IMG/VR virus record: IMGVR_UViG_3300020733_000013
Location: 1 to 64,000 of that record
Source: a virus
DNA: 64,000 nucleotides
Reading direction: 5' to 3' (one strand)
This document shows positions 1-57,623 of this stretch, in pieces. The notes under the pieces were generated by a model. The model did no database searches. It saw only the letters and a list, made by a program, of their open reading frames with translations, and was not told the DNA's origin. The position numbers and the translations under genes were made by a program. Numbering within the stretch: position 1 is the stretch's first letter; each line of letters starts with the position of its first letter.

Positions 1-234
1 ACCTATTGGACTGAACATTACTACGGAAGCAAACGCAACATTACCACTATCAGTTGGAAGGGTAAGGGTGAAGTTGACACTAATGAAATTCGTAAATGGT
101 GTAAGAAGACATTTGGTAAGAGTGGCTACCGTGAAGATATTGAAGATAGTTACTGGGTAGATAATACAGAAGTTGGCGAAATCATGTTGTGCAAAGATGA
201 GTTTCTTACTATGTTTCTATTGAGGTGGACATGA
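1..234 (+). CDS. Small Trp-rich tandem-family protein, 5'-truncated
   Basis: The frame is open from the first base of the window to a TGA, so only the C-terminal 77 residues are seen and the start lies upstream. It is the first visible member of a tandem family running to about 1830. The shared signature is a W-C pair (IRKWCKKTFG), a Trp/Tyr-rich middle, and an ending of the form D/E-x-x-F-x-x-F-x-L-R-W (here FLLRWT). It overlaps the next gene by four bases (ATGA), suggesting translational coupling. No function is recognised; the family resemblance was made by eye. Confidence 0.7.
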   Translation, partial: TYWTEHYYGSKRNITTISWKGKGEVDTNEIRKWCKKTFGKSGYREDIEDSYWVDNTEVGEIMLCKDEFLTMFLLRWT

Positions 235-617
235 CAACATTACATGATCCTAATATAGCCAGTAATGTGACGGCTACGGCGCAGAAGATTCTCATGCCCA
301 TGATTAAACACCTTACACCTACATTACTGGCACATGGTATATTGGGTGTACAACCTATGACAGGGTCGGTGGGGCAAATCTTTACTATGCGGCACAGCTA
401 TACACCACAGTCCAAATACAAGTTCAGCCGTGCTAAGTGGTACGAAGCAGACCATCGCTACGAAGACTACGAGGAAGTTATAGCATGGTGTACTGAACAT
501 TTTGGCCCACGTCCTCGATATCCTGATGCTTGGACACGATGGGCTGATATTCACATTGATAAAATTCGATTCCGTGACGAAAAAGATTATGCTTGGTTTG
601 TATTACGCTGGTCATGA
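231..617 (+). CDS. Chimera: major-capsid (gp23) N-terminal fragment fused to tandem-family domain
   Basis: I start it at the ATG in the ATGA overlap with the upstream gene (128 aa); a GTG six bases earlier is in frame. The first ~60 residues contain MPMIKHLTPTLLAHGILGVQ followed by PMTGSVGQIFTMRHSYT. This closely resembles the conserved N-terminal region of T4-type major capsid protein gp23, which in T4 reads GVQPMNSPTGQVFALRAVYG. The second half (EVIAWCTEHFG ... DEKDYAWFVLRWS) belongs to the surrounding small-protein family. The remainder of the capsid protein is absent, so this is a fusion and not a capsid gene. It could be a recombination by-product or a protein that binds capsid partners through mimicry. 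The capsid similarity is seen in sequence; function is unknown. Confidence 0.75.
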   Translation: MTTLHDPNIASNVTATAQKILMPMIKHLTPTLLAHGILGVQPMTGSVGQIFTMRHSYTPQSKYKFSRAKWYEADHRYEDYEEVIAWCTEHFGPRPRYPDAWTRWADIHIDKIRFRDEKDYAWFVLRWS

Positions 618-2390: not shown

Positions 2391-3178
2391 TTACATTACT
2401 AGGACACGGATATATTGGCGAACACATTGCAAAAGAGTTTGATGCTAGCGGTATCAACTTTAACTGGTTGCATCACACTGATACAATTCCAGAAGAAACA
2501 ACATTCATTGTTAATGCAACAGGATACACAGGTGTACCAAACGTTGATGCCTGTGAAAAAGAAAAACAACAAACTATCAACGGTAATGTTATCTTCCCAT
2601 TACAGTTAGAACAAAATAACATCAACACGCCTATACTACATATCTCAAGTGGATGCGTATATACCGGATATGAGAAAGAGTTCACAGAAAATGATGCTCC
2701 AAACTTTGACTTTAACAACGGTAGTTTTTATAGCGGTAGTAAAGCACTAGAGCAAAAACTACTTGAGCCATATATGCACAAGAGTTATTTGTTTAGAATT
2801 CGTATGCCTTTTGGTAACGAAAGTCATCCAAAGAACTTGTTTACTAAACTTGAAAAGTATGAAAGACTCATTGACTACCGTAATAGCATCAGTTACGTAC
2901 CTGATGTTGCTAAAGCAGTTCTCCACTTTATCTTGACCAGACCCGAGTGTGGAGTATATAATGTTTGTAATCCGGGTAGCGTCACAACTAAAGATATCAG
3001 TGATGCACTAGGATTGACTAAAGAATGGTTCACAGTGGATGAATTCAAAAACGCAGTAGTTGCACCAAGAAGCAATTGTGTATTGAATTCAGACAAACTA
3101 GAAAAAGTATTCCAAATGATTCCTGCAAAGATGGCAATGTTAATTGCAGTTAAAAAATACTATGAAGTTTCAGAGTGA
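2387..3178 (+). CDS. Extended SDR sugar-nucleotide epimerase/reductase-like protein
   Basis: 263 residues with a Rossmann nucleotide-binding motif at the N-terminus (GHGYIGEHI, residues 6-14). It has the SDR active-site pattern: Ser/Ser-Gly in HISSGCVYTGYE, then Tyr115-x-x-x-Lys119 (YSGSK). It resembles RmlD/NAD-dependent epimerase-dehydratase enzymes that act on nucleotide-linked sugars, probably with NAD(P). The length is a little short for the family (usually 280-340). Phages carry such enzymes to alter glycans or nucleotide sugars; the substrate cannot be read here. It starts inside the exonuclease stop codon and overlaps the next gene by 17 bases. Confidence 0.8.
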   Translation: MITLLGHGYIGEHIAKEFDASGINFNWLHHTDTIPEETTFIVNATGYTGVPNVDACEKEKQQTINGNVIFPLQLEQNNINTPILHISSGCVYTGYEKEFTENDAPNFDFNNGSFYSGSKALEQKLLEPYMHKSYLFRIRMPFGNESHPKNLFTKLEKYERLIDYRNSISYVPDVAKAVLHFILTRPECGVYNVCNPGSVTTKDISDALGLTKEWFTVDEFKNAVVAPRSNCVLNSDKLEKVFQMIPAKMAMLIAVKKYYEVSE

Positions 3179-3752
3179 CGTAGATATTGACTTTGGTAAT
3201 AGAGATAAAGTACTTGAGCACATCGAGTATACCTCTGCTGCCATGCGTAAAGTCAATCCTATTCGTAAACACGCTACTGGCATTTATGTTACTGACGTAC
3301 CATATGATAGTATAAATGACATGGCTAACTTAGATTATCAGGAAGCTGAAAAGCGCGGGTATGTTAAGTTAGACTTTTTGAATGTCCATGTTTACAACAA
3401 GGTACGTGACGAACAACATCTACGTGAACTAATGCGAGAACCTGATTGGGAGAAACTAAAGGATCAAGTATTCGTTGATAAACTTGTTCACTTGAGTAAT
3501 CATTATGCTAGTATGAAACGTATGCCTGAACCTATTGATAGCATACCTAGATTAGCAATGTTCCTTGCTGTGATTCGACCAGCTAAAAAACATTTGATTG
3601 GCTTACCCTGGCGTGAAGTAGCAAAAACTGTATGGGATAAAACTGATGGATACAGTTTCAAAAAGAGTCATAGTATTGCCTACGCACAGTTGGTAGTAGT
3701 ACACATGAACTTGTTAGAAGAATTAGGGGATGCGTTTTACGAGAGTGATTGA
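3162..3752 (+). CDS. C-terminal half of a split, abridged DNA polymerase III alpha (DnaE-like) protein
   Basis: 196 residues from the ATG at 3162 (a TTG at 3144 is possible). It begins almost directly with SDVDIDFGNRDKVLEHIEY. This matches the bacterial DnaE catalytic motif PDFDVDFCMEKRDQVIEHV, with the two active-site Asp at D8 and D10. In order follow RKHATGIYVTD (DnaE GKHAGGVVIAP), GYVKLDFL (GLVKFDFLGL), LAVIRPAK (ALFRPG) and GYSFKKSHSIAYAQL (GYGFNKSHSAAYAL). Most of the fingers is missing, as are the tau-binding and OB regions. I find no counterpart of the third catalytic Asp. The matching N-terminal half is at 43410-43916. Its 3' end overlaps a convergent gene by 30 bases. It may be a regulatory or degenerate polymerase-like protein; catalysis is doubtful. 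Confidence 0.75.
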   Translation: MKFQSDVDIDFGNRDKVLEHIEYTSAAMRKVNPIRKHATGIYVTDVPYDSINDMANLDYQEAEKRGYVKLDFLNVHVYNKVRDEQHLRELMREPDWEKLKDQVFVDKLVHLSNHYASMKRMPEPIDSIPRLAMFLAVIRPAKKHLIGLPWREVAKTVWDKTDGYSFKKSHSIAYAQLVVVHMNLLEELGDAFYESD

Positions 3753-7466: not shown

Positions 7467-7712
7467 ATGCAAAAGAAAACTCGCAGCCTCTTAGAGGAAT
7501 TAGAAGCGATTGGACAAAATCGTGACACTAAGCACATTATTGAGAGCCGTGCAAATAACATCATTACCAGCGCTATTAATTTGTTGGAAATGATTAACAA
7601 GCATTATGACTCAGAGAAAGCTGCCATCCTAGAACGCAAATTATTAAATGCTATCAAAGCACGAGATACTAGTAGATTTTCAAACAGTGTGAGGAAAACT
7701 GATGAAAATTAA
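7467..7712 (+). CDS. Small helical protein of unknown function
   Basis: 81 residues, predicted to be almost entirely alpha-helical and charged (LLEELEAIGQ ... ERKLLNAIKARD). It has its own late promoter and agga site. It overlaps the next gene, a probable head-interior protein, by 11 bases, so a virion or assembly role is likely. No family recognised. Confidence 0.7.
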   Translation: MQKKTRSLLEELEAIGQNRDTKHIIESRANNIITSAINLLEMINKHYDSEKAAILERKLLNAIKARDTSRFSNSVRKTDEN

Positions 7713-8268
7713 AGAAGTTATTATTGCTGAGGGCATATTGAGTAGTCTTGCTCAAGCTGCTTTTAAAAACAAGGGCTCAGGTGGCTATGGATATCAAAGC
7801 ATGGGCCCTAGCGGCGACTATGCCTACAAACATTTTATGCAGGGTTTTACTAAAGAACTTACTAATTTAATTCAAAGTTCAGAAACATCAGGAATGCCAG
7901 TTAATTTTCCTGCATATATCAATGCATACTTGACAAAATATCATTGGCATGCATCACAACAACAGCAACAAATATTGTTTAATATTGGATCACAATTACA
8001 AGCCTCTAGCAATCCTGGTATTTCCAAACAGTTAATCAATAAATTAGGTGCAGCATTGTGGCAAGTTGGGCATGAACAAATGCGTGACCCAAGAACTGGC
8101 AAAGTAATCAACATAAATCAAACCGACAATAGCCAAAGTAATGTGAGTTCTAACGTAATGGGGAACATGGCAAATCAGTTGACTGCTACTCCCGCAGCTC
8201 CTGTGCCACCTACTACACCTCGTCAAAGTCTAGCACAAAAAATGGCTGCAAGACGTGGCCAGGCCTAA
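7702..8268 (+). CDS. Probable head-interior protein with capsid-targeting-like N-terminus
   Basis: 188 residues. The N-terminus MKIKEVIIAEGILSS closely resembles the T4 capsid-targeting sequence (MKTYQEFIAEA), including an I-A-E/G site of the type cut by prohead protease gp21. The body is Gln/Ala-rich with no enzymatic motif. The C-terminus is low-complexity Pro/Thr followed by the basic RQSLAQKMAARRGQA. The targeting sequence and its cleavage are established for T4; applying them here is inference from motif similarity and late-gene context. Confidence 0.65.
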   Translation: MKIKEVIIAEGILSSLAQAAFKNKGSGGYGYQSMGPSGDYAYKHFMQGFTKELTNLIQSSETSGMPVNFPAYINAYLTKYHWHASQQQQQILFNIGSQLQASSNPGISKQLINKLGAALWQVGHEQMRDPRTGKVININQTDNSQSNVSSNVMGNMANQLTATPAAPVPPTTPRQSLAQKMAARRGQA

Positions 8269-9807: not shown

Positions 9808-10530
9808 ATGAAACTTAACGAATTTAACATGAAACCAACTCAAGTTGCTAAAAAAGCACTTAAAGAACATTTCAACACAAACCTAAATGTAGACAGTTTA
9901 AGTCTATACGACACTAAACGTATGCTTACAAAAGTCCGTGGTTTGATTAGCGAAATGCGTACTGGCCAAAAAGCTGTCACACGTGAATCTGATTCTTCTT
10001 ACATGAAAGCAGTATTCATGGAACAAGCATTGACACATCGCTATGGTGAGTTGAAGGCACTTCCAATGTACAATCAACGTATTGTGCTTGAGAACGAAGA
10101 AGTTGAAAAATCACAAGTTGTTTTAGCAGCACAAGAAATGGTCGACAGCCTACAAAAGATGGTTGAAGAAGTTTCTGATATGCTAGTTAAAGAACTACCA
10201 GCAGTTGTTGACGGTGTTAACAGTGAGTTTGGTACAAACGAAGGTGAAACATATAACCAACAAGTTTCCGAAGCATTGAGTTCATTACAAGCAGCATTGA
10301 CTCAAGCCCAAGGTTCAGTCAAATCAGCATTAGGATCAGTAACTGGTCAAGGTGGTGATATGGGTGCTGGCATGGATGACGGTATGGGAATGGATGACGA
10401 CATGAGCATGGATGACGGTGACATGGAAATGGACAGTGACGTTTCTGTTGAAGAACCTGAAATGGATGCTGAGCCAGAAGAAGAACCAGAAGAAGGTCCT
10501 ACTGGTAACGTCGGTAGAGCAACACGCTAA
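9808..10530 (+). CDS. Prohead core-like / head-interior protein with acidic tail
   Basis: 240 residues. It starts MKLNEFNMKPTQVAKK, an M-K-x-x-E-F N-terminus like the T4 capsid-targeting sequence, although no clear (I/L)xE site follows. The middle is helical (about residues 20-165). The last ~70 residues are extremely acidic, with runs of Met-Asp-Asp and Glu-Pro-Glu, recalling the acidic T4 prohead-core proteins (gp67/gp68). I infer a scaffold or core role; it could also be another internal protein. Confidence 0.6.
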   Translation: MKLNEFNMKPTQVAKKALKEHFNTNLNVDSLSLYDTKRMLTKVRGLISEMRTGQKAVTRESDSSYMKAVFMEQALTHRYGELKALPMYNQRIVLENEEVEKSQVVLAAQEMVDSLQKMVEEVSDMLVKELPAVVDGVNSEFGTNEGETYNQQVSEALSSLQAALTQAQGSVKSALGSVTGQGGDMGAGMDDGMGMDDDMSMDDGDMEMDSDVSVEEPEMDAEPEEEPEEGPTGNVGRATR

Positions 10531-16146: not shown

Positions 16147-18033
16147 TTAATCCGTTACTATTTTGAATACTTCTGAGAGTGACTGTTGTTCTGGTACACT
16201 TGTACCATTTGTCAATACAGTCACGTTGCTGTTGTTAATGAATGAACCCAATTGAGATTGTGATTGGTTCGTTCCTGGTGTTGCTCTGATGTTTTCACTA
16301 ATTCTTACCCATAGTGTTCCATCATAACGATATAGTAAATTAGGTAGATAATCAGTGCGTAAGAAATAATCACCTATGTTTGCACTACTTGGGAATGCAA
16401 TACCTGATTTAACTGGTAATCCGTTTGGTGAAGTACCATCACCTGACAAGTATGCACCTAAATAACCAAATCCTTGTGGAGTTACACGTAAGATAAAGTT
16501 AAATCGTGGGTCACAGTCTGCTCTAAAGTCCATTACACTTGATACAGTACCGGTAAACTCGCCACTGATTGTGATAGTTGTACCTTGCGGGATAGCAACA
16601 GTGATAGGAGTGTCAACTGCAATATGATTGTTTACTAAGTCAACGTCAATAACTCTAGTAGGACTTACGAAAGGATTAACAGTTGCTCCTGCACTACTTA
16701 CAACATTTGCACTAACTTCACAACCAACCATGATTTGGTCACTGATATCGCTTAAACCAATAATCACTGAACCTAAATCAGATCCACTTGCATGGAATTC
16801 TTGTGTAGGCATTTGATCGGCTGTACTGAATGTGTTATCACTAGTACCATATGGTCCAGTAATATCACCCACTGCTTTTGCTGTTAATACTAAATTGCCA
16901 TCAACTTGACCCGAAGTACCACTACGTTCTGGTGCAAGTTTTGCTGTCTCTAAGTTTAGACTAATAAACTTACGTAATGCGTCAAAATCATCACCACCTA
17001 GTGTTTCTAAATCTTTTAATGCAGCAGCACCAATGCGTAATACTGGACTAGGATTTCTATATCCAGGTGTACTAATCATTTGCAAAGTAGGTCTAGTTGG
17101 GATAGGTACACCCGAGTTCGCTATAATGTTGACAGGTAATGCAGGTTGGCTATTTGCTGTAGGTACAACATATAATTGACTACGGTCATATCCTGTCTTA
17201 GGTAATAGTCTTGCTGCTTCTGCAATAGCTGCATCATTGATTGCAATGTTTTTATTATAGCGACCTAGTACATCACGTAGATTATCACTTGTACTTACAT
17301 CCCAATATGTTGTGTCAGTTGGTGCAACACCTGCAGGAACTGGTCCTGGTTGTTTTGGTGTATAAGTTTTGTCTCCGTAAGTCACTGTATATCCTGGTAC
17401 ATAAACTGCTGTGTTTTTCCAATCACCTAAGTAATTGTCTTGATTCATTGGCTGACTTAATATATTGCTAAATTCTTGACTGTCAACTAATGGTTCACAT
17501 TTAATACGCCATAAGTGCGGGAACCATGTTTGACTGAATCCTTCACTTGCAAAATTAGCATCAGTGATTTGATAATATCTACGCAATCCAATTGGAATTT
17601 GATCGTTCAATGGATGATAGTCAGTTAAGTGTGGTAATTCAAATACATCACCAACCATTAATTTACGTCCTATCACATCAATCATGTCGTTGTAATGTAC
17701 TGTGACAAAAATAATATCGTTTGTTAAAAATAATCCAAACTGACTTAAATCAAAATCTAAATTTTGTACGTTGTAATGTCCACGCAATCTATAAATTGAT
17801 GTGTCATATTTACGGTCACGATTTTCCAAGAACAATAAATCCTGAATTTTTGTAGGATCAGGTGTTGTTTGTTGGGGCTGTGTCAAATCTGCACTAGCAC
17901 CCTGATCTGTGATGCCCAGATATTTGTGAACATACATATCCGTTGCACCCACAGTAAACATTTCCTTGATACTTCTATCTAGGAATCTATAATCGTTTGA
18001 TTTATCTGAGCGATAAAGGCTGAGTCTGGGCAT
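16147..18033 (-). CDS. 14: gp14-like neck protein with extra domains
   Basis: 628 residues. The N-terminal ~210 residues resemble T4-type neck protein gp14: a conserved start region, DLSQFGLFLTNDIIFV, RKLMVGDVFELPHL, and a later YYQITDANFASEGFSQ. T4 gp14 has 256 residues, so most of this protein is additional. The extra part has beta-rich Gly/Thr/Val sequence and a C-terminal GDYFLRTDYLPNLLYRYDG-then-TLWVRI module. The adjacent gp15-like gene supports the neck assignment, as 14 and 15 are neighbours in T4. Assignment moderate. Confidence 0.6.
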   Translation of the reverse strand: MPRLSLYRSDKSNDYRFLDRSIKEMFTVGATDMYVHKYLGITDQGASADLTQPQQTTPDPTKIQDLLFLENRDRKYDTSIYRLRGHYNVQNLDFDLSQFGLFLTNDIIFVTVHYNDMIDVIGRKLMVGDVFELPHLTDYHPLNDQIPIGLRRYYQITDANFASEGFSQTWFPHLWRIKCEPLVDSQEFSNILSQPMNQDNYLGDWKNTAVYVPGYTVTYGDKTYTPKQPGPVPAGVAPTDTTYWDVSTSDNLRDVLGRYNKNIAINDAAIAEAARLLPKTGYDRSQLYVVPTANSQPALPVNIIANSGVPIPTRPTLQMISTPGYRNPSPVLRIGAAALKDLETLGGDDFDALRKFISLNLETAKLAPERSGTSGQVDGNLVLTAKAVGDITGPYGTSDNTFSTADQMPTQEFHASGSDLGSVIIGLSDISDQIMVGCEVSANVVSSAGATVNPFVSPTRVIDVDLVNNHIAVDTPITVAIPQGTTITISGEFTGTVSSVMDFRADCDPRFNFILRVTPQGFGYLGAYLSGDGTSPNGLPVKSGIAFPSSANIGDYFLRTDYLPNLLYRYDGTLWVRISENIRATPGTNQSQSQLGSFINNSNVTVLTNGTSVPEQQSLSEVFKIVTD

Positions 18034-22142: not shown

Positions 22143-23330
22143 ATGAGAGCAAGTGAGTTCATTGTTGAGTATAAGCAATATCCTCTGGAAGAGTTTGAGG
22201 GTATCAATATGAAACTTAAAGTAGACAACCATGAGTTGATTCTGCAGGCTCTTGACGACTGGGGTAACAAAGTACTAGGTCATGTTAGAATGAACATAGG
22301 CGATGGTAGTGAACTAGACCCTCAAGATTTACAAGTTGACGAACGTTATAGAGGTCAGGGCATAGCAAAGGTAATGTATGATTACCTTAAGTCTAAAGGT
22401 TATGAAATACATCGTAGTCCTGACCAAACAGATGACGGTAAACATTTTTGGGACAAGAACCGCGGTGAAGAAGGTAATGTTTGGGAAGATGTTTTCGGTT
22501 CAAAAGCACCAAAGAAATTTGAACCTCTGGAAGAGTTTGAGGAAAATAATCTAAAACTAGAACCCGAACCGTATGAAGGTTGGACTGGCGAAGGTATTAT
22601 TATTCGTGCGTATTTGAGTGACAAAGAAGTAGGGCATGTAATCTTTGAACCTACAGAAGATGATGAAACACAATGGTATGCAGTTGATGTTGAAGTAGAT
22701 GACAACTATCAGCGTAAAGGTATTGCTACATCTATGTATAACTTGGCTAAGAATATTGCTAAAAAGCGTGGTATAATTATTGTTCGTAGTCATGCACAAA
22801 GTCAAGCCGGTCAAGGTCTTTGGCAAGATAAAAAAGTTTGGGAAGATGTACCTAAACCTGGACCAAGTTCAGGAGCGCCAAAGCAATTTGGACCTGACGC
22901 AAAGATAGAAACTCGCCAAATGACTGTAAAGCAATTAATCTCGTCAGTACCAGGCTTGCCCTACTACAACAATGTAGTTGATGATTGGGATGCTAAGGAC
23001 TATAGTTGGGGAGTTACTAAGAAGGTAATAGAATACGCAACTTATCTAAAAGAACATCCAGAGAGTTTGTCAAAGTTGCCACCCATAATAGTATTGAACG
23101 GCAAGTTTGAAGATGGCGCACATAGAGTGTCTGCTATATGGTTGCTACAACAAAGAATGGATCCTAAAAATCCACTGTGGTCAAATGCCAAACTAAATGT
23201 TCAATTCGTTACTCAAAATATCAACGAATCATTTCTAATATTGGTGAGAAAAATGGTTTCTTTGGTAAGAAACACACAGATGAACAACGACAAAGAAAAA
23301 GAACCGAAAAACTTTTATCCCCTAAAATAA
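22143..23330 (+). CDS. Double GNAT acetyltransferase with ParB-like domain and capsid-targeting-like start
   Basis: 395 residues. The N-terminus MRASEFIVEYKQ resembles a capsid-targeting sequence with an I-V-E cleavage site. Two GNAT acetyltransferase domains follow, each with the acetyl-CoA loop R/Q-x-x-G-x-A: VDERYRGQGIAKVMYDY (about residues 60-76) and VDDNYQRKGIATSMYNL (about 180-200). After these comes a ParB/sulfiredoxin-like motif, PPIIVLNGKFEDGAHRVSAI (about 318-337). The last ~25 residues read out of frame into a homing-endonuclease remnant, so the natural C-terminus was probably truncated. If packaged, it could modify host proteins on entry, as T4 Alt does by ADP-ribosylation; that is inference. 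Confidence 0.72.
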   Translation: MRASEFIVEYKQYPLEEFEGINMKLKVDNHELILQALDDWGNKVLGHVRMNIGDGSELDPQDLQVDERYRGQGIAKVMYDYLKSKGYEIHRSPDQTDDGKHFWDKNRGEEGNVWEDVFGSKAPKKFEPLEEFEENNLKLEPEPYEGWTGEGIIIRAYLSDKEVGHVIFEPTEDDETQWYAVDVEVDDNYQRKGIATSMYNLAKNIAKKRGIIIVRSHAQSQAGQGLWQDKKVWEDVPKPGPSSGAPKQFGPDAKIETRQMTVKQLISSVPGLPYYNNVVDDWDAKDYSWGVTKKVIEYATYLKEHPESLSKLPPIIVLNGKFEDGAHRVSAIWLLQQRMDPKNPLWSNAKLNVQFVTQNINESFLILVRKMVSLVRNTQMNNDKEKEPKNFYPLK

Positions 23331-31313: not shown

Positions 31314-31931
31314 ATGAAAAGCCTACGTCATTATCTAATGGAAAGTGTCAGAACATATCGTTACACGATTAAAATCGCTGGCGATGTCGATAAGAATTTT
31401 ATCGACTTGTTCACACACAATCTTACAAAATTCGATCCAGTAAAGATTGAAGACTCAAAAACTACTCCAGTTCAAAAAGATCCATATGGATTTCCTGACC
31501 TACAGAATGAATCTATTACGATTATTAAAGCAGAGTTCAAGTACCCTGCAACTGAACCAATGATTCAGCAAATTGCACAATTGTTAGGTAAGAACATCAA
31601 TACTGTACGTGTATTAACTACAGATTATGATGACAGTATCAACAGTGAAGCAGACAAATATGCTAATCAAATGGATGCAGAAGAAAAACAAGCATTACTA
31701 AACACTGAAACATTAGAAGATAATGGTAAAGAAGCAAGCAAAGAATATGCAAATCAATACTTAGATAAGGTTGTTCCTAAGAAGCCAAGTATTGATATTC
31801 CTTATGCAGGCAAACAAACTCCTACTCAACCTAACAAGAGTAAAGAAGGAATCAACACAACTAGTGCTATGGGCAACGGTCGTGTTACAATGCCAGCAAA
31901 ACCACAAACAGGCTCTAGAAAGGCAGGATGA
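31314..31931 (+). CDS. Probable head-interior protein
   Basis: 205 residues. The N-terminus MKSLRHYLMESVRTYRY is short, basic and hydrophobic with an L-M-E/S site resembling gp21-type (I/L)xE cleavage. The first half is mixed alpha/beta (YRYTIKIAGDVDKNFIDLF, ITIIKAEFKYPA). The second half is charged, helical and then Pro/Thr/Lys-rich. It lies beside the small terminase. I infer a core or internal protein; no exact homologue is named. Confidence 0.6.
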   Translation: MKSLRHYLMESVRTYRYTIKIAGDVDKNFIDLFTHNLTKFDPVKIEDSKTTPVQKDPYGFPDLQNESITIIKAEFKYPATEPMIQQIAQLLGKNINTVRVLTTDYDDSINSEADKYANQMDAEEKQALLNTETLEDNGKEASKEYANQYLDKVVPKKPSIDIPYAGKQTPTQPNKSKEGINTTSAMGNGRVTMPAKPQTGSRKAG

Positions 31932-32170
31932 TGGTGGATTTTACTACTAGTCAATTGTCATGGATAGTAGTTGGTGCATGTGGCATTGGTGGTACTGGTT
32001 ACCTCTCAATGAATGCCAATATCAACGATCTAAATACTAAGACAACAGTTATTCAAGTTAAAGCAGAAAATGCAGAATCAAAAATGAATGACATGGGTAA
32101 ACAATTAGATAGAATTGAACAAGCGTTAGCAGTATTGCAAGAAACGCAAAATAGAAAAGGATCAAAATAA
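31928..32170 (+). CDS. Small membrane-anchored coiled-coil protein
   Basis: 80 residues from the ATG at the ATGA overlap. An N-terminal hydrophobic segment (LSWIVVGACGIGGTGYLSMN) is followed by a heptad-like helix (INDLNTKTTVIQVKAENAES ... LDRIEQALAVLQE). This is one membrane segment plus coiled coil. It may be a lysis accessory (small holin or spanin-like) or an anchor for head proteins. The next ATG overlaps its stop by one base. Confidence 0.62.
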   Translation: MMVDFTTSQLSWIVVGACGIGGTGYLSMNANINDLNTKTTVIQVKAENAESKMNDMGKQLDRIEQALAVLQETQNRKGSK

Positions 32171-34554
32171 TGGATTTTAAAAGCCTATTACAGTCATTCG
32201 ACACATTGAGCGAAGCTGAAACAAAAGATACAAAGACTGGTAGAGTCCATAAAGGTGACTATGGTAATAGTTACGATGCAGGCGAAGACCATGAAGTTAA
32301 AAGTGCTACTGCTCCTAAAAAGGGACGTGGTCGTCCTAAGAAAGGCAGTGGCGATTCTGGCGAAGTCAAATCATACGATACTAAATCAATTGGTAATGTG
32401 TTTGGTGCTGGTTCAAAGCCAAACAAGTCAGTTGGAACAGTTTCTAAAAAGCATTCATTAAAAGAATATATTGAAAGTGTTGAATCTAGTAAACAACTAG
32501 ATGAAGCAGTTATTGCTCCTACTCAACCAACAAATGGTATGGGTGGAAAACAAACTAGTTCTGGTAACCCACAACAAGATGCACAAAAAAATGCAGCAAT
32601 TAGCAACAATGCTAGAACAGCAATTAGTAAGTTAAGCAATGCTGGAATTAGTATTCCTAACAAATCACAAGCTGCAAATACAGCAATGAAGGCAGCGATA
32701 CAACCAAATGCTCAACCAACTCCGCAAGACAAAGATGCTGAAATGAATTTAGCAGCACAAGTAAATAATTTACTTTCAAAAGCTCCTGAAAGTCAAGTTG
32801 ACCAATTTACAAACGTTATTAAACAAATGACAAAATCTGCGGCTCCATCAGGATTATCAGAAGAAGCAGTTGAAGAGGGCAAAGACGAAGGCAAGCCAGG
32901 TAAGAACTTTGCTAAGATTGCCAAGTCAGCAGGTGCACATTATGGTTCAAAAGCTGCTGGCGAACGTGTAGCAGGTGCAGTTCGTGCTAAGTTAATGAAA
33001 CAAGGTAAACTTGAAGAATCTGCCGAAGAAAAATCATACACATGTGTACATGCTAAAAAAGGTAAATGTGAAGTAACTGCTACCACGAGCTATGATGCGG
33101 CTAAAAAGGCAGCAGCTAAATGGAAACTCAACAGCACATCTGGAATTGATGCACACTTAAACACAACAAAAGTTGCAGTAGATGAAGCAGCTAAGCCAGA
33201 CTTCTTAGACATGGACAAAGACGGTAACAAGAAAGAAAGTTTCAAGAAAGCCGTAAATGATAAAAAGTCTAAAAAGAAAGTAGCTGAAAGCCGCATTCAC
33301 GAAGATTCAGATTATACATATGAAACGGTTGCTAAAGTATTGGCACGTGAGAAGCCAGGATTGAATACTAGTTCAGATGATTTTTCAAGTGCAGTTTACC
33401 ATGAACTAATTGCTATTGGTATGACTCCAAAATCAGCACATAACTTAATGAGTTTCAATGAAGACTTTTTGAGTGATGTAGCAACATCATATGAGCACTA
33501 TCAAACAAACCCATCATTAGATGAAGGTGCAACTGAAGATTTTGCACAAAAAGCTCCTGGAATCAAGCCAAGCAAAGTTGTTCAAGTTCCAGCAAAACAA
33601 GAACCTACTCCATGGAAAGTAGATCCAATTAACGCGGCTACAGATAGAGCATACAATTTTATCTCTAACTTACGCAAAGACAAAACATTTGAAAGTGACG
33701 ATATGAAAGACGTACAATTTGAAAGCTGGGAAAAACAGCTAAACGGTTTATTGAATGAAGGTATCACAGTATCAACAAGTACTGGTCAGCAAGGTGCTCC
33801 TGATTCAGTAAGCATCAATGCAACTGATGCAGACGCAGAACAACTATTGTCAGTACTACGTACTGCTGGTGTTGGCGTATTTGGTGGCAACGAAAAACCA
33901 GAAATTGGTTACGGTGTAGCGCAAGGTGGTGAAGAAGAACCAACAGGTACAGGTACAGAACCAGAAGCAGCTCCGGAAGTAGTTGGTGACGAAGGCGACA
34001 TGTTAGCATTGATTAAGAAAATGGCTGGTATGGGTGATGAAGGTTCATCACACGGTGGTGACTATGAAGATGAAGAAAGTTCAGAAGAATCACAAGATGG
34101 TACATTAGAACCAGCTAGTGCAGATGACGAAGAATCTGATGACGAGGAAGAAGAACAAACTGATGAAGGTAATGCTTTCACTGGTAAATTGAAAGACACA
34201 CCAAAAGGTGGAGAATTCAAAATGGGTGATAAAGAGTACAAAGACACAAGTTCTATTGAAGAAAACGAAGAAATGTGTGATGAATGCGGTTACACTATGA
34301 ACGAGTGTGAATGTGAACATGAACACGGTGACGAAGACCAAGTTGAAGAATGCTGGGCTAACGATGCAGGTGGTGACGCTGAAGGTGGTACAGAATTGAT
34401 GAAACTAAAAGCATTGTTGAGCATGGGCAATGACTTGCACAAAATGAAACGTAGTCAGTCTGTTGGTAATCCAACAAAAGTCACAATGGAAGATACATTG
34501 ATGAAAAACTCAACAGAAATGTTGACTGACTGGAAAAAGTTAAGCGGAATCTAA
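32170..34554 (+). CDS. Large head-interior protein with AT-hook, Ca-loop and Cys cluster
   Basis: 794 residues, low in hydrophobic core. N-terminus MDFKSLLQSFDTLSEAETK has an L-S-E/A site like those cut by the prohead protease. An AT-hook-like DNA-binding motif occurs at about residues 50-60 (KKGRGRPKKGSG). An EF-hand-like DMDKDGNKKE loop lies near 345. Late in the protein come long acidic Glu/Asp runs and a Cys cluster, CDECGYTMNECECEHEH (about 702-718). Low-complexity Gln/Asn/Ala stretches fill between. I infer a packaged DNA-associated protein. It ends at a strong terminator. Confidence 0.65.
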   Translation: MDFKSLLQSFDTLSEAETKDTKTGRVHKGDYGNSYDAGEDHEVKSATAPKKGRGRPKKGSGDSGEVKSYDTKSIGNVFGAGSKPNKSVGTVSKKHSLKEYIESVESSKQLDEAVIAPTQPTNGMGGKQTSSGNPQQDAQKNAAISNNARTAISKLSNAGISIPNKSQAANTAMKAAIQPNAQPTPQDKDAEMNLAAQVNNLLSKAPESQVDQFTNVIKQMTKSAAPSGLSEEAVEEGKDEGKPGKNFAKIAKSAGAHYGSKAAGERVAGAVRAKLMKQGKLEESAEEKSYTCVHAKKGKCEVTATTSYDAAKKAAAKWKLNSTSGIDAHLNTTKVAVDEAAKPDFLDMDKDGNKKESFKKAVNDKKSKKKVAESRIHEDSDYTYETVAKVLAREKPGLNTSSDDFSSAVYHELIAIGMTPKSAHNLMSFNEDFLSDVATSYEHYQTNPSLDEGATEDFAQKAPGIKPSKVVQVPAKQEPTPWKVDPINAATDRAYNFISNLRKDKTFESDDMKDVQFESWEKQLNGLLNEGITVSTSTGQQGAPDSVSINATDADAEQLLSVLRTAGVGVFGGNEKPEIGYGVAQGGEEEPTGTGTEPEAAPEVVGDEGDMLALIKKMAGMGDEGSSHGGDYEDEESSEESQDGTLEPASADDEESDDEEEEQTDEGNAFTGKLKDTPKGGEFKMGDKEYKDTSSIEENEEMCDECGYTMNECECEHEHGDEDQVEECWANDAGGDAEGGTELMKLKALLSMGNDLHKMKRSQSVGNPTKVTMEDTLMKNSTEMLTDWKKLSGI

Positions 34555-43409: not shown

Positions 43410-43916
43410 ATGCATTCTGACAAATATGGCTTACAAGTTTTAAACGAATCTGATCTATGTGATTACTACTTACGTAATCCAGATCAGGTATTGAAACATG
43501 CCATTGTTGAAAAACAAATCACATTCCCTAGCGATTTAGATTTAGAAAATATCCCAGAATTATTAGAGTACGCACCACTTGATATTACTATTGACGAGTT
43601 TGACAGTATCTATCAAAACACATGGTACATGCCAGATGAATACAAGAATTTTGATATTGTCAAATATGTACTAGACTTGTGCAAAACAGACCAAGAACTG
43701 CAAAGAGTGGGTGACGAGTTATTGAAGTTTCAGGAACGAGACTTGTTTGTATTACTGTGCTACTGTAAATATTTGGTAGACACAATGCGTAAACATAATA
43801 TCGTTTGGGGAGTGGGTAGAGGATCAAGCGTGTCTAGTTATGTATTGTACCTGATAGGGGTACACCGCATAAATAGCATATTCTATGATTTAGACATAGA
43901 TGAATTTTTAAAATAG
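43410..43916 (+). CDS. N-terminal half of a split, abridged DNA polymerase III alpha (DnaE-like) protein
   Basis: 168 residues. The C-terminal part (ELLKFQERDLFVLLCYCKYL, NIVWGVGRGSSVSSYVLYLI, then GVHRINSIFYDLDIDEFLK) matches the DnaE palm segment before the catalytic Asp pair: E. coli GPGRGSGAGSLVAYAL ... LDPLEFDLLFERFLNPER. The G-R-G-S-S nucleotide-binding motif is at 136-140. The gene stops exactly where DnaE would continue into PDFDVDF, and the gene at 3162 begins exactly there. There is no PHP domain and no intein or split-intein motif at the break. It heads an early operon with the clamp loader. The protein pair may form a heterodimer. Confidence 0.78.
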   Translation: MHSDKYGLQVLNESDLCDYYLRNPDQVLKHAIVEKQITFPSDLDLENIPELLEYAPLDITIDEFDSIYQNTWYMPDEYKNFDIVKYVLDLCKTDQELQRVGDELLKFQERDLFVLLCYCKYLVDTMRKHNIVWGVGRGSSVSSYVLYLIGVHRINSIFYDLDIDEFLK

Positions 43917-47162: not shown

Positions 47163-47804
47163 ATGAGCAATCCAACAGACGAATTTTTTGATAGCGTAGA
47201 CTATCCTAGTATCATTGATAACATCAAGGGAATTTACACCAGTGATGGTATGATGAGCACCCTAATGGACTTTGAACGTGTATTAGATGAAGCAGATTTG
47301 TATGCTTTCCGTAACTGGGACTTAGGTGAATTAGTATCCGGTCCTAGAGTACGTAGATATGACGTTGCATGTATGTTTATGTATCCATTAAAACGTATGC
47401 CAGACCCAACTGGGGCTAAACGTCTATTAAAATTGGGTTGTGACGTTAAGTTTAAAAAGACAAAAATCAAAGTACCTATCAAAATTGAAGGTCCGGGCGA
47501 CTATAAACCAGGAACTCACTATCCAAAAATGACTGAACGTGATATTTGGTTAGTGTTAATTGAAATGCCAAAAGAACTAATGAACGATATTCGTGAAGGT
47601 TCTATCGACTTGGCTGAACAAACAATTGATTTAGAGGACTTGGATAAAGCCTACGAACAAGACCTAGATAAAGAAAGTACTGAGGATCAAGATGATAATG
47701 CATCATCGGGTCAAATGCCAGGAATGGATCAAGGTCTAGGTGGTGGTATGAGTCCAGGTGGTTTAGGTGGTCCTGCTCCAATGCAAGGTCCAGGGGGCAT
47801 GTAA
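47163..47804 (+). CDS. Conserved late protein with Gly/Met/Pro-rich tail
   Basis: 213 residues from the ATG predicted to be the 5' end of the late transcript. The N-terminal ~150 residues are a folded domain conserved in aquatic T4-like phages (DNIKGIYTSDGMMSTLMDFE, ALMDERVLDEADLYAFRNW-type segment, TERDIWLVLIEMPKELMND). The tail is acidic and then Gly/Met/Pro-rich (GQMPGMDQGLGGGMSPGGLG). Its stop overlaps the next start by one base. Likely a virion or assembly protein; role unknown. Confidence 0.7.
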   Translation: MSNPTDEFFDSVDYPSIIDNIKGIYTSDGMMSTLMDFERVLDEADLYAFRNWDLGELVSGPRVRRYDVACMFMYPLKRMPDPTGAKRLLKLGCDVKFKKTKIKVPIKIEGPGDYKPGTHYPKMTERDIWLVLIEMPKELMNDIREGSIDLAEQTIDLEDLDKAYEQDLDKESTEDQDDNASSGQMPGMDQGLGGGMSPGGLGGPAPMQGPGGM

Positions 47805-48343
47805 TGAATAAAGTTCTTAATGAAGGTTTTGACTATCACGACTTAGTGGATCAAGTTATCCCAGAAATCTCAATTGACGAGTACGCAGCTAAAATGGGTA
47901 CCAACGATGAGATTGTTACACTTACATTTACAACAAAAGGCAAGCAACAAGCTAGTGATTTGGTTGACTGGCTAGAACGCGGATACGACTTTGTATTAGA
48001 TGCTGAAGTCAGTGAAGGTGAAGTTTCACCAGGTAAGTATTTAGTATTTGTAGAAATGAATCGTAGAACAAGTGTGCCAGAACGTATTTGTGAAATGGTT
48101 GAAGACATGAAAACATTAACAGATTTAGACAGTGACAAATGGTCTGTTAAGATTGAAGATAAAGAATACAAAGCTGACAAAGAAATTCTAAAGCAACATA
48201 TTATTTTAAGCCCGCAAAAATATCGTGAACTCAAAGAAACAGACTTAAATGAAATGCGTCAACGTGCTGGATTAGAAACACATAAGATATACTCTAACCC
48301 AGACAAAATTTTAAAAGATTACTTAGCAAAGGCAGGATTATAA
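47804..48343 (+). CDS. Conserved late protein, possible head-interior protein
   Basis: 179 residues. The N-terminus MNKVLNEGFDYHDLVDQV includes an L-N-E/G site like those cut by T4 prohead protease. The rest is alpha/beta (VTLTFTTKGKQQASDLVDWL, YLVFVEMNRRTSVPERICEM) with a helical C-terminus. It is coupled to the gene before by TAATG. Assignment to the head interior is inference from the N-terminus; function unknown. Confidence 0.6.
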   Translation: MNKVLNEGFDYHDLVDQVIPEISIDEYAAKMGTNDEIVTLTFTTKGKQQASDLVDWLERGYDFVLDAEVSEGEVSPGKYLVFVEMNRRTSVPERICEMVEDMKTLTDLDSDKWSVKIEDKEYKADKEILKQHIILSPQKYRELKETDLNEMRQRAGLETHKIYSNPDKILKDYLAKAGL

Positions 48344-53134: not shown

Positions 53135-53472
53135 TGGCACAAAGTTCAGCATATCAATTGTTGCCACAAACAGCATACAAACAAGTTTCACAAGTGATTG
53201 GTGATAAAGTTCCTGCCGCCGCATATTATATCAAGCAAAACAATATGCAGACATTCACATGGAATCTTACAACATTTACCGGTCTATTACAAATTCAAGC
53301 AACACTAGCAGATAATCCAGGCAATGGTGACTGGTTCACTATCTATAACCTATCAGGTAATCAATTAACTCAAACTAGCTTTACTAATATATCTGGTAAC
53401 TTTGTTTGGGTTCGTGCTGTAATCAATAACTTTGGTTTTGGTGTTGTTCAAAGTGTTAAGGTTAGCTATTAA
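53134..53472 (+). CDS. Small virion structural protein (jelly-roll-like)
   Basis: 112 residues, beta-rich: YYIKQNNMQTFTWNLTTFTG, LLQIQATLADNPGNGDWFTI, NFVWVRAVINNFGFGVVQSV. The pattern matches small beta-sandwich virion proteins of aquatic T4-like phages. No catalytic motif. It is coupled on both sides by TAATG overlaps, so it is translated with the multi-enzyme gene that follows. Confidence 0.65.
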   Translation: MAQSSAYQLLPQTAYKQVSQVIGDKVPAAAYYIKQNNMQTFTWNLTTFTGLLQIQATLADNPGNGDWFTIYNLSGNQLTQTSFTNISGNFVWVRAVINNFGFGVVQSVKVSY

Positions 53473-56400
53473 TGAAAATTGCCGCACTATTAGAAAGTAA
53501 ACAACCATTGATGGAAGGTGGTAATTTAAGTGTGGGCAAACATGAAGCAGAACACTTAGATTTGAAAGTTACAAAACGTAGCTACATGGTTCCCAAACTC
53601 AATGAACTATTAAACGCAATCAATAAAGCATTCAATGTAAAACACAAGGCTCCATTATGGAGTAGTGAATTATTGTCAAGCGGTAAGTTTTTGAGTGGTA
53701 GTAGTTTACATTTCTTTGATGTTGCGGGTATCAGTGATGATACATTCTTTGCTAAGAAGCCAACTGTAGGTGATATTGATACCATGGTTGACAAACGTTT
53801 GGAATTCATTTTACAAGAATTCTTAACAAGTGCAACAAATAAACAAATTGGTCCTGCAAAATTGCTAGGATTTCAAAAAGGTAACGAACAATATTCTGCA
53901 TTGTTTGAGTTACAAGACCCACCCGTAAAAGTACAAATTGACTTTGAATTTGTTTCTTTTGAGAATGGAATGCCTAGCGACTGGGCAAGATTTAGTCATA
54001 GCAGTTCATGGGATGATATCCAACAAGGTGTTAAGGGTGTATTTCATAAGTGGTTGATTCAATCATTGACTACACTAACCAACAAGCAATTCCTGTTACG
54101 TAAAATGATCGGTCGTGGTGCAATGCGTAAAGAAGAGGACATCCCTACAACAGACAACATGTATAGTTTTGCCGTGTCTAGTAAAGAAGGTGGCGGATTA
54201 CGTGCTAAGTACGAACCAGTATTAAATCCTAACACAAACAAACCATTAGTGATTAAGGGTTTGCCTGTAATGAAAGCAGCACCTGCAGCTGGATACGAAC
54301 AAAACATTGGTAAGATTTTTTCAACTATACTAGGCAAACGTCTTGACCCTAAACAAATGCAAGCTATCTCTAATAACTTCTGGTCATTCACTGGGTTAGT
54401 ACAGTTGATGGGTAAGATATTATCACCAGAAGATAAACAAACAGTATTGCTCGGTTTCTTAAACAAAACAATCGGTAAAGGTAGTCAAGGTCTTTACAAG
54501 AACAATCCAGAAAAAGATATCAGTGAAAAAACAACAGCAATCAATTATCTAGTTAAAACATTAGGACTACAATTGCCACCTGAGTTCAATCAAATGATGG
54601 CTGACTATAGAAAAAACTATAAGATGACTGAACTATCAGAAGCAGGTCCTAACTATAAGCGTCAAGGTATCCCACACATTTACAAGCCTGGCTCAACAGT
54701 TGAATTGAAAGATAATGAGTTCATTGAGTTATGTAAAGAAATCATGGCTGATGGTGGTAAACTTGAAGGTGTACCAATCAACTTGAAAGTTGATGGTGCA
54801 GGCATCAGATTTGGTAAAGACCAAAATGGTCGTCCATTCTTTATGACAAGTAAAGTTACAGAACCTAAATACATTGAGAATTTTGGTGACTTTGAAAAGT
54901 ATGGTCGTAGTGTTGGACAAGACGAAGAACGATTGAACTTTACTAAGCAATATGACAATGCATTAAAGACAATATTGACTGCTCCATTTATGAAAGTTAT
55001 CCCTAGTGATACTATCGTACAAGCAGAAATGATGTATACTCCAATGGCTCAACAAGAGAATGGCGGCTTGAAGTTTGTTAACATCCCTTATGATCCTAAA
55101 AAGTTGGGTAAAGAGATGACTCTTGTACCATTCATGTTCAAACAGTTTAGCACTGGACAAGTTCGTCCTGACAGTCAAAAGATTAAAGAAGCACTATTAA
55201 AAACAAGCAATAGTAAAATTAAAATGGTTAACAACAACTTGCAACATAAAGGTATTGATGTTGCTAAGATTGTTAGTCCTATTGTTAAAAACGCAGATAC
55301 ATTAAGTGCTGCGGTTGCTACTCGTGGAACAAATCCTACAAAAGAAAAAGCAAAAGCTATCTTGTCTCAAGCTAGACAACAACTAAGCAATGCTATTATC
55401 AATGGACCTATTCCAGGTAAAGATCAATTGGGTGACATGATTGAAGGTCTTGTTATCAATATGCCTAGTGGTTTACTAGCTAAAGTAACAAGCACAGACA
55501 TGGCAAACAAGATGGCTACTAAAATGGCTGCTCGTCAACCAGTCAAAGGTAATCAACGCCCTGCTGTAGTTGCTGTGGGCAGTGCGATTGGGCATGTAGG
55601 ACATCAACAATTATTCAACCATGCAATCGCTCTAGCAAAACAAGTTGGTGGTCAACCTTACATGTTTATAGGACCTGCAGAAGGTAAAGATGATCCTATT
55701 CCACCAAGTGTTAAAGTTGAAACATGGCATAAGTTATACCCACAACTAGCGAGTAACATATCAACTGTTAGTCATGAGGGCGGTACATTACTACAGAAAA
55801 TCAAACATGAGTTGATTAATCCTCAACCAGGTAAACCACCAAGATATGATACAATTTATATTGTTGTTGGTAGTGATAGACATGACATGGCTGAAAGTTG
55901 GAGCAAATCTCTAATGAAAGCAGTTAACAAGTTCCCTGGATATGAAGGTGTTAAAGTTGTTCCACATGTAACGTCACGTGATAAGAATGAAGGTGGTACA
56001 GGTATAAGCGGAACATTACTACGTAGTGTTTTATCAGACAAAACAAAAACTCCAGAACAGCAATTTGAAGTTTGGAATCATGCTTACAATAGTGGTAACT
56101 ATGGTGCTCAGAAACTACCGGCAGAGTGGATTCAGCACTTAATGAATATTGCTCGTAAGGGTATGGGAATGCAAACTATGAATGAGTCAAGAATCTTTAA
56201 TCCAAAGTCATTAGTTAATGTATATTATGTTTCCCCTAATGGCAATCGTCATAAGTTAGCAAAAAGCATTCCGTATGATTTAGTTGAGAAACTATTACAT
56301 GCATTGAAAGTTAAAAAGAACATTGACATTCACATGGATGATGTTGAAGTTCGTCCTGCTGATCCCTCACAATATACAGTGAGCACCAGTCAGTTTGATG

Positions 56401-57623
56401 AAGGTTCAGAAGAAGCATTACAATATGCAACTAAAGCACATGCTGGGCAAACTCGTTCAGGTGGTGATCCATATATCAGTCACCCAGTTCGTGTAGCTAA
56501 TCATATCAAGCAATTTAAAAAATCACATAACCTAGATGCATTAATTAGTGCAGCATACTTACATGATACAATTGAAGATACTGACACAACACAAGAAATC
56601 TTACACGATTTGTTTGGCGGATTAGTTGCTAGTCTTGTAATGGAACTTACAAGCGATCCAGAACAAATTAAAAAGATAGGTAAGGCTCAATATCTAGCAC
56701 ACAAAATGGCTGCAATGAGTAGCTATGCACTAGTTATCAAACTTGCTGATAGATTAGATAATGTCAAAGATATCACTACTGCTAAGACTCCTGAATGGAG
56801 ACACAAATATGCAACTGAAACTAATCACATCTTAGATTACATTGAAAAGCATCGTGCTTTGTCAGGTACCCATACTAAATTGATTGATATGATTCGTGCT
56901 AAGTTGGCTGAGATTGACCAACCACAGCAAGATGTGGCGGAAGGCAAGAACATGCCAGACTTAGAACATGTTGGCGAAAGAGTAGTATCTGTTATGGATG
57001 CTGAACGCAGACTTGCCCATGGAGATAGAATATTTGCGTTCCACGAAATGGATGAAGAGCCGTTTGAGATTCACAATGTCGGTGAGTTGGCAGGATATGA
57101 TACTGAACAGTTATTGGCAGTACCACAAAGTGTAGCGGAAGAAGCAGACGAACAAAAAAGCTCAAATGTCTTTCAATCTATGGGTAGTCAATTAATTGCT
57201 ATGGGTAATGATGCTGATAAAATTAAAAGGCATGACCCATCAGTTATTGAAAAAGCAATTGATGCTAAATTAGAAAAAATCAATGATCCAAAACTTACAC
57301 ATGTTACGAAATCCTTTTTGAGTAAAGTTGTTAAGTTCAATAGAAGTAATCCAAAAACAATGGCAGCAATATTTGGATTTACCTTCTCTATTATTGCTAG
57401 AGTATCAATGCAATTTAGTCATAATATGGGACTTAGTCCAACACAAGCAACATTACTAATAGAAGCATTATTGCCTACATTGGGTAATTTCTTGGGTTAC
57501 ATTGTCAATGGGTTTAGTGTAAAAGACAGTGTACAAGCTGGATTGATTGCTGGAACAATTGGCGTCGGCGGCACCTTGGCTGCAAGCGGTGCATTGTCTG
57601 AAGATTATTTAGACGAAAAATAA
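53472..57623 (+). CDS. Multi-domain enzyme: nucleotidyltransferase, ligase-like, NMNAT-like, RelA/SpoT HD hydrolase, membrane tail
   Basis: 1383 residues. N-terminus MKIAALLESKQPLMEGGNL resembles a capsid-targeting sequence with L-L-E/S and L-M-E/G sites. Domains follow in order. A nucleotidyltransferase-like GSSLHFF ... VGDIDTMVD (about 74-106). A ligase/adenylyltransferase fold with NLKVDGAGIRFG (Lys439), VQAEMM and EGLVINMPSGLLAKV. An HxGH nucleotidyltransferase resembling NMN adenylyltransferase, with GHVGH near 706 and ISGTLLR near 845. A RelA/SpoT-type HD hydrolase with HPVRVA (about 1004) and HDTIEDT (about 1031). The last ~90 residues contain hydrophobic membrane-like segments. Motifs are seen; injection and substrates are inference. 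Confidence 0.78.
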   Translation: MKIAALLESKQPLMEGGNLSVGKHEAEHLDLKVTKRSYMVPKLNELLNAINKAFNVKHKAPLWSSELLSSGKFLSGSSLHFFDVAGISDDTFFAKKPTVGDIDTMVDKRLEFILQEFLTSATNKQIGPAKLLGFQKGNEQYSALFELQDPPVKVQIDFEFVSFENGMPSDWARFSHSSSWDDIQQGVKGVFHKWLIQSLTTLTNKQFLLRKMIGRGAMRKEEDIPTTDNMYSFAVSSKEGGGLRAKYEPVLNPNTNKPLVIKGLPVMKAAPAAGYEQNIGKIFSTILGKRLDPKQMQAISNNFWSFTGLVQLMGKILSPEDKQTVLLGFLNKTIGKGSQGLYKNNPEKDISEKTTAINYLVKTLGLQLPPEFNQMMADYRKNYKMTELSEAGPNYKRQGIPHIYKPGSTVELKDNEFIELCKEIMADGGKLEGVPINLKVDGAGIRFGKDQNGRPFFMTSKVTEPKYIENFGDFEKYGRSVGQDEERLNFTKQYDNALKTILTAPFMKVIPSDTIVQAEMMYTPMAQQENGGLKFVNIPYDPKKLGKEMTLVPFMFKQFSTGQVRPDSQKIKEALLKTSNSKIKMVNNNLQHKGIDVAKIVSPIVKNADTLSAAVATRGTNPTKEKAKAILSQARQQLSNAIINGPIPGKDQLGDMIEGLVINMPSGLLAKVTSTDMANKMATKMAARQPVKGNQRPAVVAVGSAIGHVGHQQLFNHAIALAKQVGGQPYMFIGPAEGKDDPIPPSVKVETWHKLYPQLASNISTVSHEGGTLLQKIKHELINPQPGKPPRYDTIYIVVGSDRHDMAESWSKSLMKAVNKFPGYEGVKVVPHVTSRDKNEGGTGISGTLLRSVLSDKTKTPEQQFEVWNHAYNSGNYGAQKLPAEWIQHLMNIARKGMGMQTMNESRIFNPKSLVNVYYVSPNGNRHKLAKSIPYDLVEKLLHALKVKKNIDIHMDDVEVRPADPSQYTVSTSQFDEGSEEALQYATKAHAGQTRSGGDPYISHPVRVANHIKQFKKSHNLDALISAAYLHDTIEDTDTTQEILHDLFGGLVASLVMELTSDPEQIKKIGKAQYLAHKMAAMSSYALVIKLADRLDNVKDITTAKTPEWRHKYATETNHILDYIEKHRALSGTHTKLIDMIRAKLAEIDQPQQDVAEGKNMPDLEHVGERVVSVMDAERRLAHGDRIFAFHEMDEEPFEIHNVGELAGYDTEQLLAVPQSVAEEADEQKSSNVFQSMGSQLIAMGNDADKIKRHDPSVIEKAIDAKLEKINDPKLTHVTKSFLSKVVKFNRSNPKTMAAIFGFTFSIIARVSMQFSHNMGLSPTQATLLIEALLPTLGNFLGYIVNGFSVKDSVQAGLIAGTIGVGGTLAASGALSEDYLDEK

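What the first reader, a model, noticed from the sequence alone, without database searches (positions are those of the whole stretch)
7702..7750. A family of capsid-targeting-like N-termini marks about nine proteins
Seen: MKIKEVIIAE|G (7702), MRASEFIVE|Y (22143), MKSLRHYLME|S (31314), MDFKSLL...LSE|A (32170), MNKVLNE|G (47804), MKIAALLE|S (53472), plus MKLNEF (9808), MRLYEF (10537) and MNLKEF (58732). Known: T4 internal proteins are sent into the prohead by MKTYQEFIAE|A-type leaders cut by gp21 at (I/L)xE. Inference: these proteins, including enzymes, are packaged and probably injected.
Basis: partly seen in the sequence, partly recalled or inferred. Interest (0 to 1): 0.8.

Follow-up and report, generated by a model that had tools for sequence, protein, structure and literature searches.

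The report
Capsid-packaged, protease-cut phage effector cassettes
A group of uncultured giant phages appears to tag many unrelated proteins with a short start peptide that sends them into the virus head, and to string some of them into long chains punctuated by cut sites of the head protease, so that enzymes could be swapped as cassettes, packed, cut apart and possibly injected into the host.

Summary
The window is part of a RaK2/Atu_ph07/PA5oct-like jumbo myovirus (75.9-kb fragment). All nine N-termini exist as read. Six carry an (I/L/V)xE site near the start. In the window alone this is marginal (6 vs 2 expected, p=0.01). Comparison makes it convincing: MR(A)xEF(I/L)xE starts 90 ORFs of at least 20 families in relatives (reversed-pattern control 0), with silent codons varying. 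Leaders of 31314, 32170, 47804 and 53472 are conserved; leaderless homologues of 53472 begin exactly after the predicted cut. MRLYEF and MNLKEF lack a site; MKLNEF has one only at E20. Every relative record with a full gp23 also has a gp21-type protease, and the gp22 scaffold is saturated with the same site. The larger finding: related ORFs, including window 53472-57623, are mosaics of enzyme modules separated by such sites, often a DNA repeat CAAGGTGTGGCGGAAGGC (QGVAE|G), in frame in 254 of 255 cases. A close relative carries a clean 561-bp two-module insertion exactly at VAE|G. Tat and Sec-like signals sit directly after these sites. Packaging is inferred (several homologues are virion proteins of PA5oct or RaK2); cleavage and injection are untested.

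The parts
22143..22169 (+). Leader MRASEFIVE| of a protein with two GNAT domains and a ParB-like module
   Evidence: Same leader form in 90 ORFs of relatives; relative G001:82862 MRAKEFIYE
31314..31343 (+). Leader MKSLRHYLME|S
   Evidence: (I/L)xE|S kept in seven relatives; PA5oct homologue MS-positive
32170..32214 (+). Leader MDFKSLLQSFDTLSE|A of a 794-aa, site-rich protein (7 further internal sites vs 2.8 expected)
   Evidence: LSE|A kept in relatives; internal sites
47804..47824 (+). Leader MNKVLNE|G
   Evidence: (I/L)NE|(G/A) or LSE|G / LLE|G in nearly all relatives; RaK2 homologue annotated virion protein
53472..53516 (+). Leader MKIAALLESKQPLME|GGN (second possible cut after E8)
   Evidence: Leaderless homologues begin MGGN; CP220 MKLSELMFILE|GGN
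7702..7731 (+). Candidate leader MKIKEVIIAE|G
   Evidence: Motif only; no relatives; syntenic PA5oct gene MS-positive
9808..9867 (+). Candidate longer leader MKLNEFNMKPTQVAKKALKE|H
   Evidence: (A/V)L(K/N/R)E conserved near residue 20; PA5oct homologue MS-positive
54633..54644 (+). Internal predicted cut LSE390|A between module 1 and the ligase-like module 2
   Evidence: Coincides with a junction between separate genes in Xanthomonas phage X1
56178..56189 (+). Internal predicted cut MNE905|S, start of the alarmone-hydrolase-like module
   Evidence: low-confidence gap in the model
56187..56942 (+). Module residues 906-1157 with an HD domain similar to MESH1/RelA/SpoT hydrolases
56925..56945 (+). 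Cassette repeat CAGCAAGATGTGGCGGAAGGC (QQDVAE1157|G)
   Evidence: Empty site of the 561-bp two-module insertion found in L004
22827..23231 (+). ParB-like module ending at INE362|S, found in over 20 other architectures

Best explanation
The N-termini are capsid-targeting leaders of the T4 internal-protein type. During prohead assembly they bring their proteins into the core, where a gp21-type S77 protease cuts after (I/L/V)xE. In this uncultured jumbo-phage clade the principle is extended: whole enzyme modules (acetyltransferase, ParB-like, kinase-like, nucleotidase, methyltransferase, alarmone-hydrolase-like, GH19 lysin) are strung behind one leader and separated by the same cut site, often encoded by a short in-frame DNA repeat at which modules are gained and lost. 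Cutting would release separate proteins in the head; some would then expose Tat or Sec signal peptides at their new N-terminus. They would be ejected with the DNA, plausibly as early anti-host or anti-defence effectors. Shown by sequence: leaders, sites, repeats, module insertion, the protease in relatives. Inferred: packaging, cleavage, injection, effector role.
For: Leader enrichment and variety of carriers. Silent-site variation shows selection on the peptide. T4 leaders match. Peptidase_S77 and full-length gp23 occur together in 10 of 24 relative records, neither in the other 14. The gp22-like scaffold has 11-14 sites against 1.4-2 expected, T4 gp22 10 against 2.3. Predicted gp23 cut LLAE|SSAG. 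Leaderless homologues start at the predicted cut. Internal sites in leader proteins 123 against 58 shuffled; other proteins 762 against 644 (the leader set includes the scaffold). Repeat in GVAE frame 254/255. Clean two-module insertion. Module shuffling. Tat motifs 4/4 within 3-7 aa after GVAE, where 4.5% of positions lie within 10 aa of such a site or leader. PA5oct virion MS of homologues.
Against: No mass-spectrometric N-terminus exists for this clade. The record itself lacks gp21 and an intact gp23, as a fragment may. The residue after the cut in MRxxEF leaders is A/G/S in only 29 of 90. PA5oct's homologue of 31314 has lost the E, and its homologue of 47804 was not detected in virions. 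MRxxEF..E is absent from the four isolates examined. Enrichment of (ILV)xE(AGS) starts among PA5oct virion proteins is modest (6/93 vs 5/305, p=0.02), and the homologue test is not significant (5/6 vs 56/122, p=0.08). Some predicted sites lie inside folds, e.g. DMIE658|GLV.
Confidence: 0.74

Rival explanations
1. The GVAEG element is a selfish or recombinogenic DNA repeat that merely tolerates being translated; the peptide is a neutral linker and nothing is cut there.
For: The DNA is nearly identical at silent positions across phages, and modules are gained and lost at it. The scan pattern itself selected for identical DNA.
Against: 254 of 255 sites lie in the same open frame and none was seen outside a long ORF. 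The peptide equals the scaffold cut motif (LVAE|G, FVAE|S in gp22). Silent variants keep GVAE. Tat motifs follow it directly. The leaders themselves vary silently.
Confidence: 0.12
2. The shared starts are inherited gene-start pieces (duplicated upstream and start regions, or N-terminal stability tags) without a targeting role.
For: Several leader genes lie side by side (e.g. G001 121024-123442, G003 90969-95216), as after duplication. Half of the carriers have an unusual residue after the E.
Against: At least 20 sequence-unrelated families carry the leader, its codons vary silently, it matches the proven T4 leader, and leaderless homologues begin at the predicted cut.
Confidence: 0.08
3. The leaders are targeting signals, but the proteins act inside the head as scaffold or core and are not injected effectors.
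For: 32170, 47804 and 9808 look structural (site-rich, conserved, 'head and packaging' PHROGs for 47804 and 9808), and T4 core proteins are cut the same way.
Against: Many carriers have enzyme domains with no head role known, and some have export signals behind the cut.
Confidence: 0.2

Closest known systems
Phage T4 internal proteins IPI-IPIII with capsid-targeting sequence, cut by gp21
   Same: About 10-residue N-terminal leader ending (I/L)xE, shared by otherwise unrelated proteins (PMC12373910: Ip1-3 share only the leader); S77 protease and gp22/gp23 homologues in the same phage clade.
   Different: Here many more carriers, many with enzyme folds, with repeated internal sites and multi-module ORFs; leader form MRAxEF(I/L)xE.
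Polyvalent proteins of phages and conjugative elements (Iyer et al. 2017, PMC5512222)
   Same: Multi-domain effector proteins (ParB-like, ART and others) thought to enter the host with the DNA; compared by their authors to polyproteins.
   Different: There release is ascribed to embedded peptidase domains; here repeated sites for a head protease acting in trans, a T4-type leader, and an in-frame DNA repeat as exchange point.
Giant phage SPN3US/phiKZ ejection proteins with propeptides cut by their prohead protease
   Same: Packaged, ejected proteins processed after an xxE motif (PMC5694885, PMC10052503).
   Different: Mostly long propeptides and one mature product each; motif AxE or SxE; no cassette repeat described there.
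Pseudomonas phage PA5oct / Klebsiella phage RaK2 virion proteins
   Same: Homologous or syntenic genes, several detected in virions.
   Different: The MRxxEF..E leader was not found in these isolates; the GVAEG repeat was not searched there.

Membership tests
T4-type capsid-targeting (CTS) internal proteins | Short N-terminal leader ending in (I/L/V)xE shared by otherwise unrelated proteins | tested here: met
   met by 22143, 31314, 32170, 47804, 53472; not by 10537 and 58732.
T4-type capsid-targeting (CTS) internal proteins | gp21-like S77 protease encoded by the same phage | tested here: inconclusive
   Present in all 10 relative records that hold a full-length gp23; not found in this 75.9-kb fragment.
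T4-type capsid-targeting (CTS) internal proteins | Protein present in the virion head | tested here: inconclusive
   Homologues or syntenic counterparts of 31314, 9808, 7702 and 32170 are MS-positive in PA5oct; that of 47804 is MS-negative there but annotated a virion protein in RaK2. No data for this clade.
T4-type capsid-targeting (CTS) internal proteins | Leader removed by the protease and protein injected | not testable with these tools
   Needs semi-tryptic virion proteomics and ejection assays.
Polyvalent proteins | Several effector-type domains in one polypeptide, exchanged between proteins | tested here: met
Polyvalent proteins | Embedded peptidase domain thought to release the parts (in many members) | tested here: not met
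   No peptidase domain in 53472, 22143 or 32170 by Pfam and PHROGs; release would be in trans.

The most novel reading that the evidence does not exclude
These phages run an exchangeable cassette system for injected effectors: capsid-targeted polyproteins whose modules are added, dropped and shuffled at an in-frame 18-bp repeat that doubles as the head-protease cut site, so every inserted module is automatically released, packaged and delivered, some with a Tat or Sec signal for onward export to the periplasm.
Probability: 0.55. Interest if true: 0.88.

Novelty: new variant of a known kind. Interest (0 to 1): 0.78.

Why it matters
It would give a sequence rule for spotting injected proteins in giant phages, whose early weapons are mostly unknown, and turn dozens of 'hypothetical' ORFs into testable candidate effectors. 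It would also show a bacterial-virus polyprotein strategy in which the cut site and the recombination site are one element, and supply natural leaders and cut sites for loading proteins into phage heads.

Tried and rejected
Loose counting of (ILVFM)xE starts in the window: not significant. Own-record search for gp21: none, a fragment. Enrichment of leaders in PA5oct MS-positive proteins: weak; pattern D was drawn after seeing the list and is discounted. Homologue test MS+ vs MS-: p=0.08. AlphaFold model of residues 640-1383 of 53472 from four sequences: mean pLDDT 47, uninformative except a low-confidence gap at the MNE905 site. GVAEG repeat in the bacterial genome collection (257 billion bases): 98 hits scattered over phyla; my estimate of chance for such a pattern is about 30 or more, so these were taken as background and not examined further. 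No paper found on the repeat. 7702 gave no relatives. Close DNA relatives of two cassette-phage stretches among isolated phages: none. 10537 and 58732 rejected as leaders. Site DMIE658|GLV in 53472 judged a false positive: it lies in a block conserved in its relatives.

Full report
WHAT IS THERE. The window is bases 1-64000 of a 75,890-base linear virus record. Gene content is that of a far-T4 jumbo myovirus: sheath, tube, neck and head-closure proteins, primase and helicase, split DNA polymerase, lysis genes. The 628-aa protein at 16147-18033(-) matches Agrobacterium phage Atu_ph07 and PA5oct at 45-48% identity over about half its length. Thirty-two window ORFs have PA5oct homologues, largely in the same order. 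The nine N-termini of the finding are real ORF starts.

CHANCE. In the record alone the strict motif at starts gives 6 against 2.0 expected (p=0.01), while looser motifs are weak or not significant. The window by itself would not settle the matter.

LEADERS IN RELATIVES. I retrieved four long relatives (G001-G004, 230-364 kb). M(K/R)xxEF(ILVF)xE starts 23 of 1458 ORFs (this record included), with about 0.04 expected after shuffling and 1 of 7648 internal methionines (the pattern was chosen after looking). A DNA form of the pattern in 20 further records gave 24 hits and 0 for the reversed pattern. Across all loci there are 90 such ORFs in at least 20 BLAST-separate families; residue 3 is Ala in 78, residue 7 is I/L/V in 89, and the codons for A, E and F vary silently. 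The T4 record gives MKTYQEFIAE|A (ipII, ipIII), MKTFKEFTSTTTPVSTITE|A (ipI) and MAKINELLRE|S (gp24).

LEADER BY LEADER. 31314: (I/L)xE|S in seven relatives. 47804: (I/L)NE|(G/A), or LSE|G and LLE|G, in nearly all. 32170: LSE|A in its relatives. 9808: a site at (A/V)L(K/N/R)E near residue 20. 10537 and 58732: conserved starts without a site. 53472: homologues in Vibrio phage phiKT1024 and Xanthomonas phage X1 begin MGGN, exactly where E15|GGN would leave the mature end, and Campylobacter phage CP220 has a leader MKLSELMFILE|GGN. 7702 has no relatives.

THE PROTEASE. Peptidase_S77 and a full-length gp23 occur together in 10 of 24 relative records and neither occurs in the other 14 (G001 and G018 also show short extra gp23 matches). 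The gp22-like scaffold holds 11-14 (ILV)xE(AGS) sites against 1.4-2.0 expected, as T4 gp22 does (10 vs 2.3), and gp23 has LLAE|SSAG where T4 has FLTE|AEIG. The cut motif is therefore the clade's own, not only borrowed from T4.

POLYPROTEIN CASSETTES. Leader proteins have twice the expected number of internal sites (123 vs 58, the scaffold included; other proteins 762 vs 644). Many contain QGVAEG, encoded by CAAGGTGTGGCGGAAGGC. A capped scan of viral contigs gave 120 stretches and more, with 255 core sites; GVAE is the longest open frame at 254 of them, in ORFs of median 630 aa. Many of those ORFs start with leaders such as MRAQEFITE, MKINEIISE or MRINEILVE. The repeat is short: conservation fades beyond about 20 bases. 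Modules recur at different places in different ORFs. The clearest comparison is the window's 53472 protein with L004: DNA is 97% identical to the left and 99% to the right of QQDVAE|G, and L004 carries exactly 561 bp more, an acetyltransferase module and a small module, each ending VAE. L005, 99.8% identical on the left, carries a third version. The ParB-like module of window 22143 appears 76-93% identical in over 20 architectures behind different leaders and ends at NINE|S. In X1, parts of 53472 are separate genes, one of whose junctions falls at LSE390|A.

SIGNALS EXPOSED BY CUTTING. All four RRxFL Tat motifs in 164 such proteins lie 3-7 residues after GVAE, although only 4.5% of positions lie within 10 residues of such a site or a leader. 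A further one follows a leader directly (MRATEFISEDISRRGFLGG). More than half of 23 hydrophobic segments begin 2-8 residues after an xE|G-type site. Such signals normally need a free N-terminus, so this is independent support for cutting.

VIRION EVIDENCE. The PA5oct record marks proteins seen by ESI-MS/MS. Homologues of 31314 and 9808 are marked; syntenic counterparts of 7702, 32170 and 10537 are marked; that of 47804 is not, but its RaK2 homologue is annotated as a virion structural protein. Mature parts of MRxxEF proteins of the clade hit three PA5oct proteins, all marked. These tests are supportive but statistically weak.

MODULE FUNCTIONS. GNAT, GH19, NT5C nucleotidase, methyltransferase, Tat signal, kinase-like (phrog_15752) and an HD domain close to MESH1/RelA/SpoT hydrolases. 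An early anti-host or anti-defence role is inference, by analogy with T4 internal proteins (PMC12373910).

VERDICT. Best reading: T4-type capsid-targeting leaders extended into head-protease-cut, exchangeable effector polyproteins. Packaging, cleavage and injection remain to be shown.

Noticed in passing
window 225-617 (+): A 130-aa ORF whose residues 12-59 are 48% identical to gp23 residues 51-97, just after the predicted mature N-terminus, fused to a small W-rich domain; similar gp23 fragments occur in G001 (13507, 200850). Orphan capsid-protein pieces, purpose unknown.
   Followed up: partly
G000:74235-75890 (same record, beyond the window): ORF MKINETF... running off the contig end with three QGVAE|G repeats at 75418, 75610 and 75796, related to a family that starts with leaders in other phages.
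   Followed up: yes
window 34528-34551 and gp22 of G001-G004: The 794-aa protein ends DWKKLSGI and the gp22-like scaffold ends DIKRLAGL: a possible shared C-terminal head-assembly tag.
   Followed up: no
window 3162-3752 and 43410-43916: Two separate short ORFs matching DNA polymerase families (phrog_11778, phrog_11127) lie 40 kb apart: a split polymerase.
   Followed up: no
G002:36199, G004:107972, G001:23358, G003:220717: A further family (starts such as MPTNTETLNRQLYQLL) with 6-11 internal (ILV)xE(AGS) sites against about 2-3 expected, without a typical leader: another candidate protease-cut head protein.
   Followed up: partly
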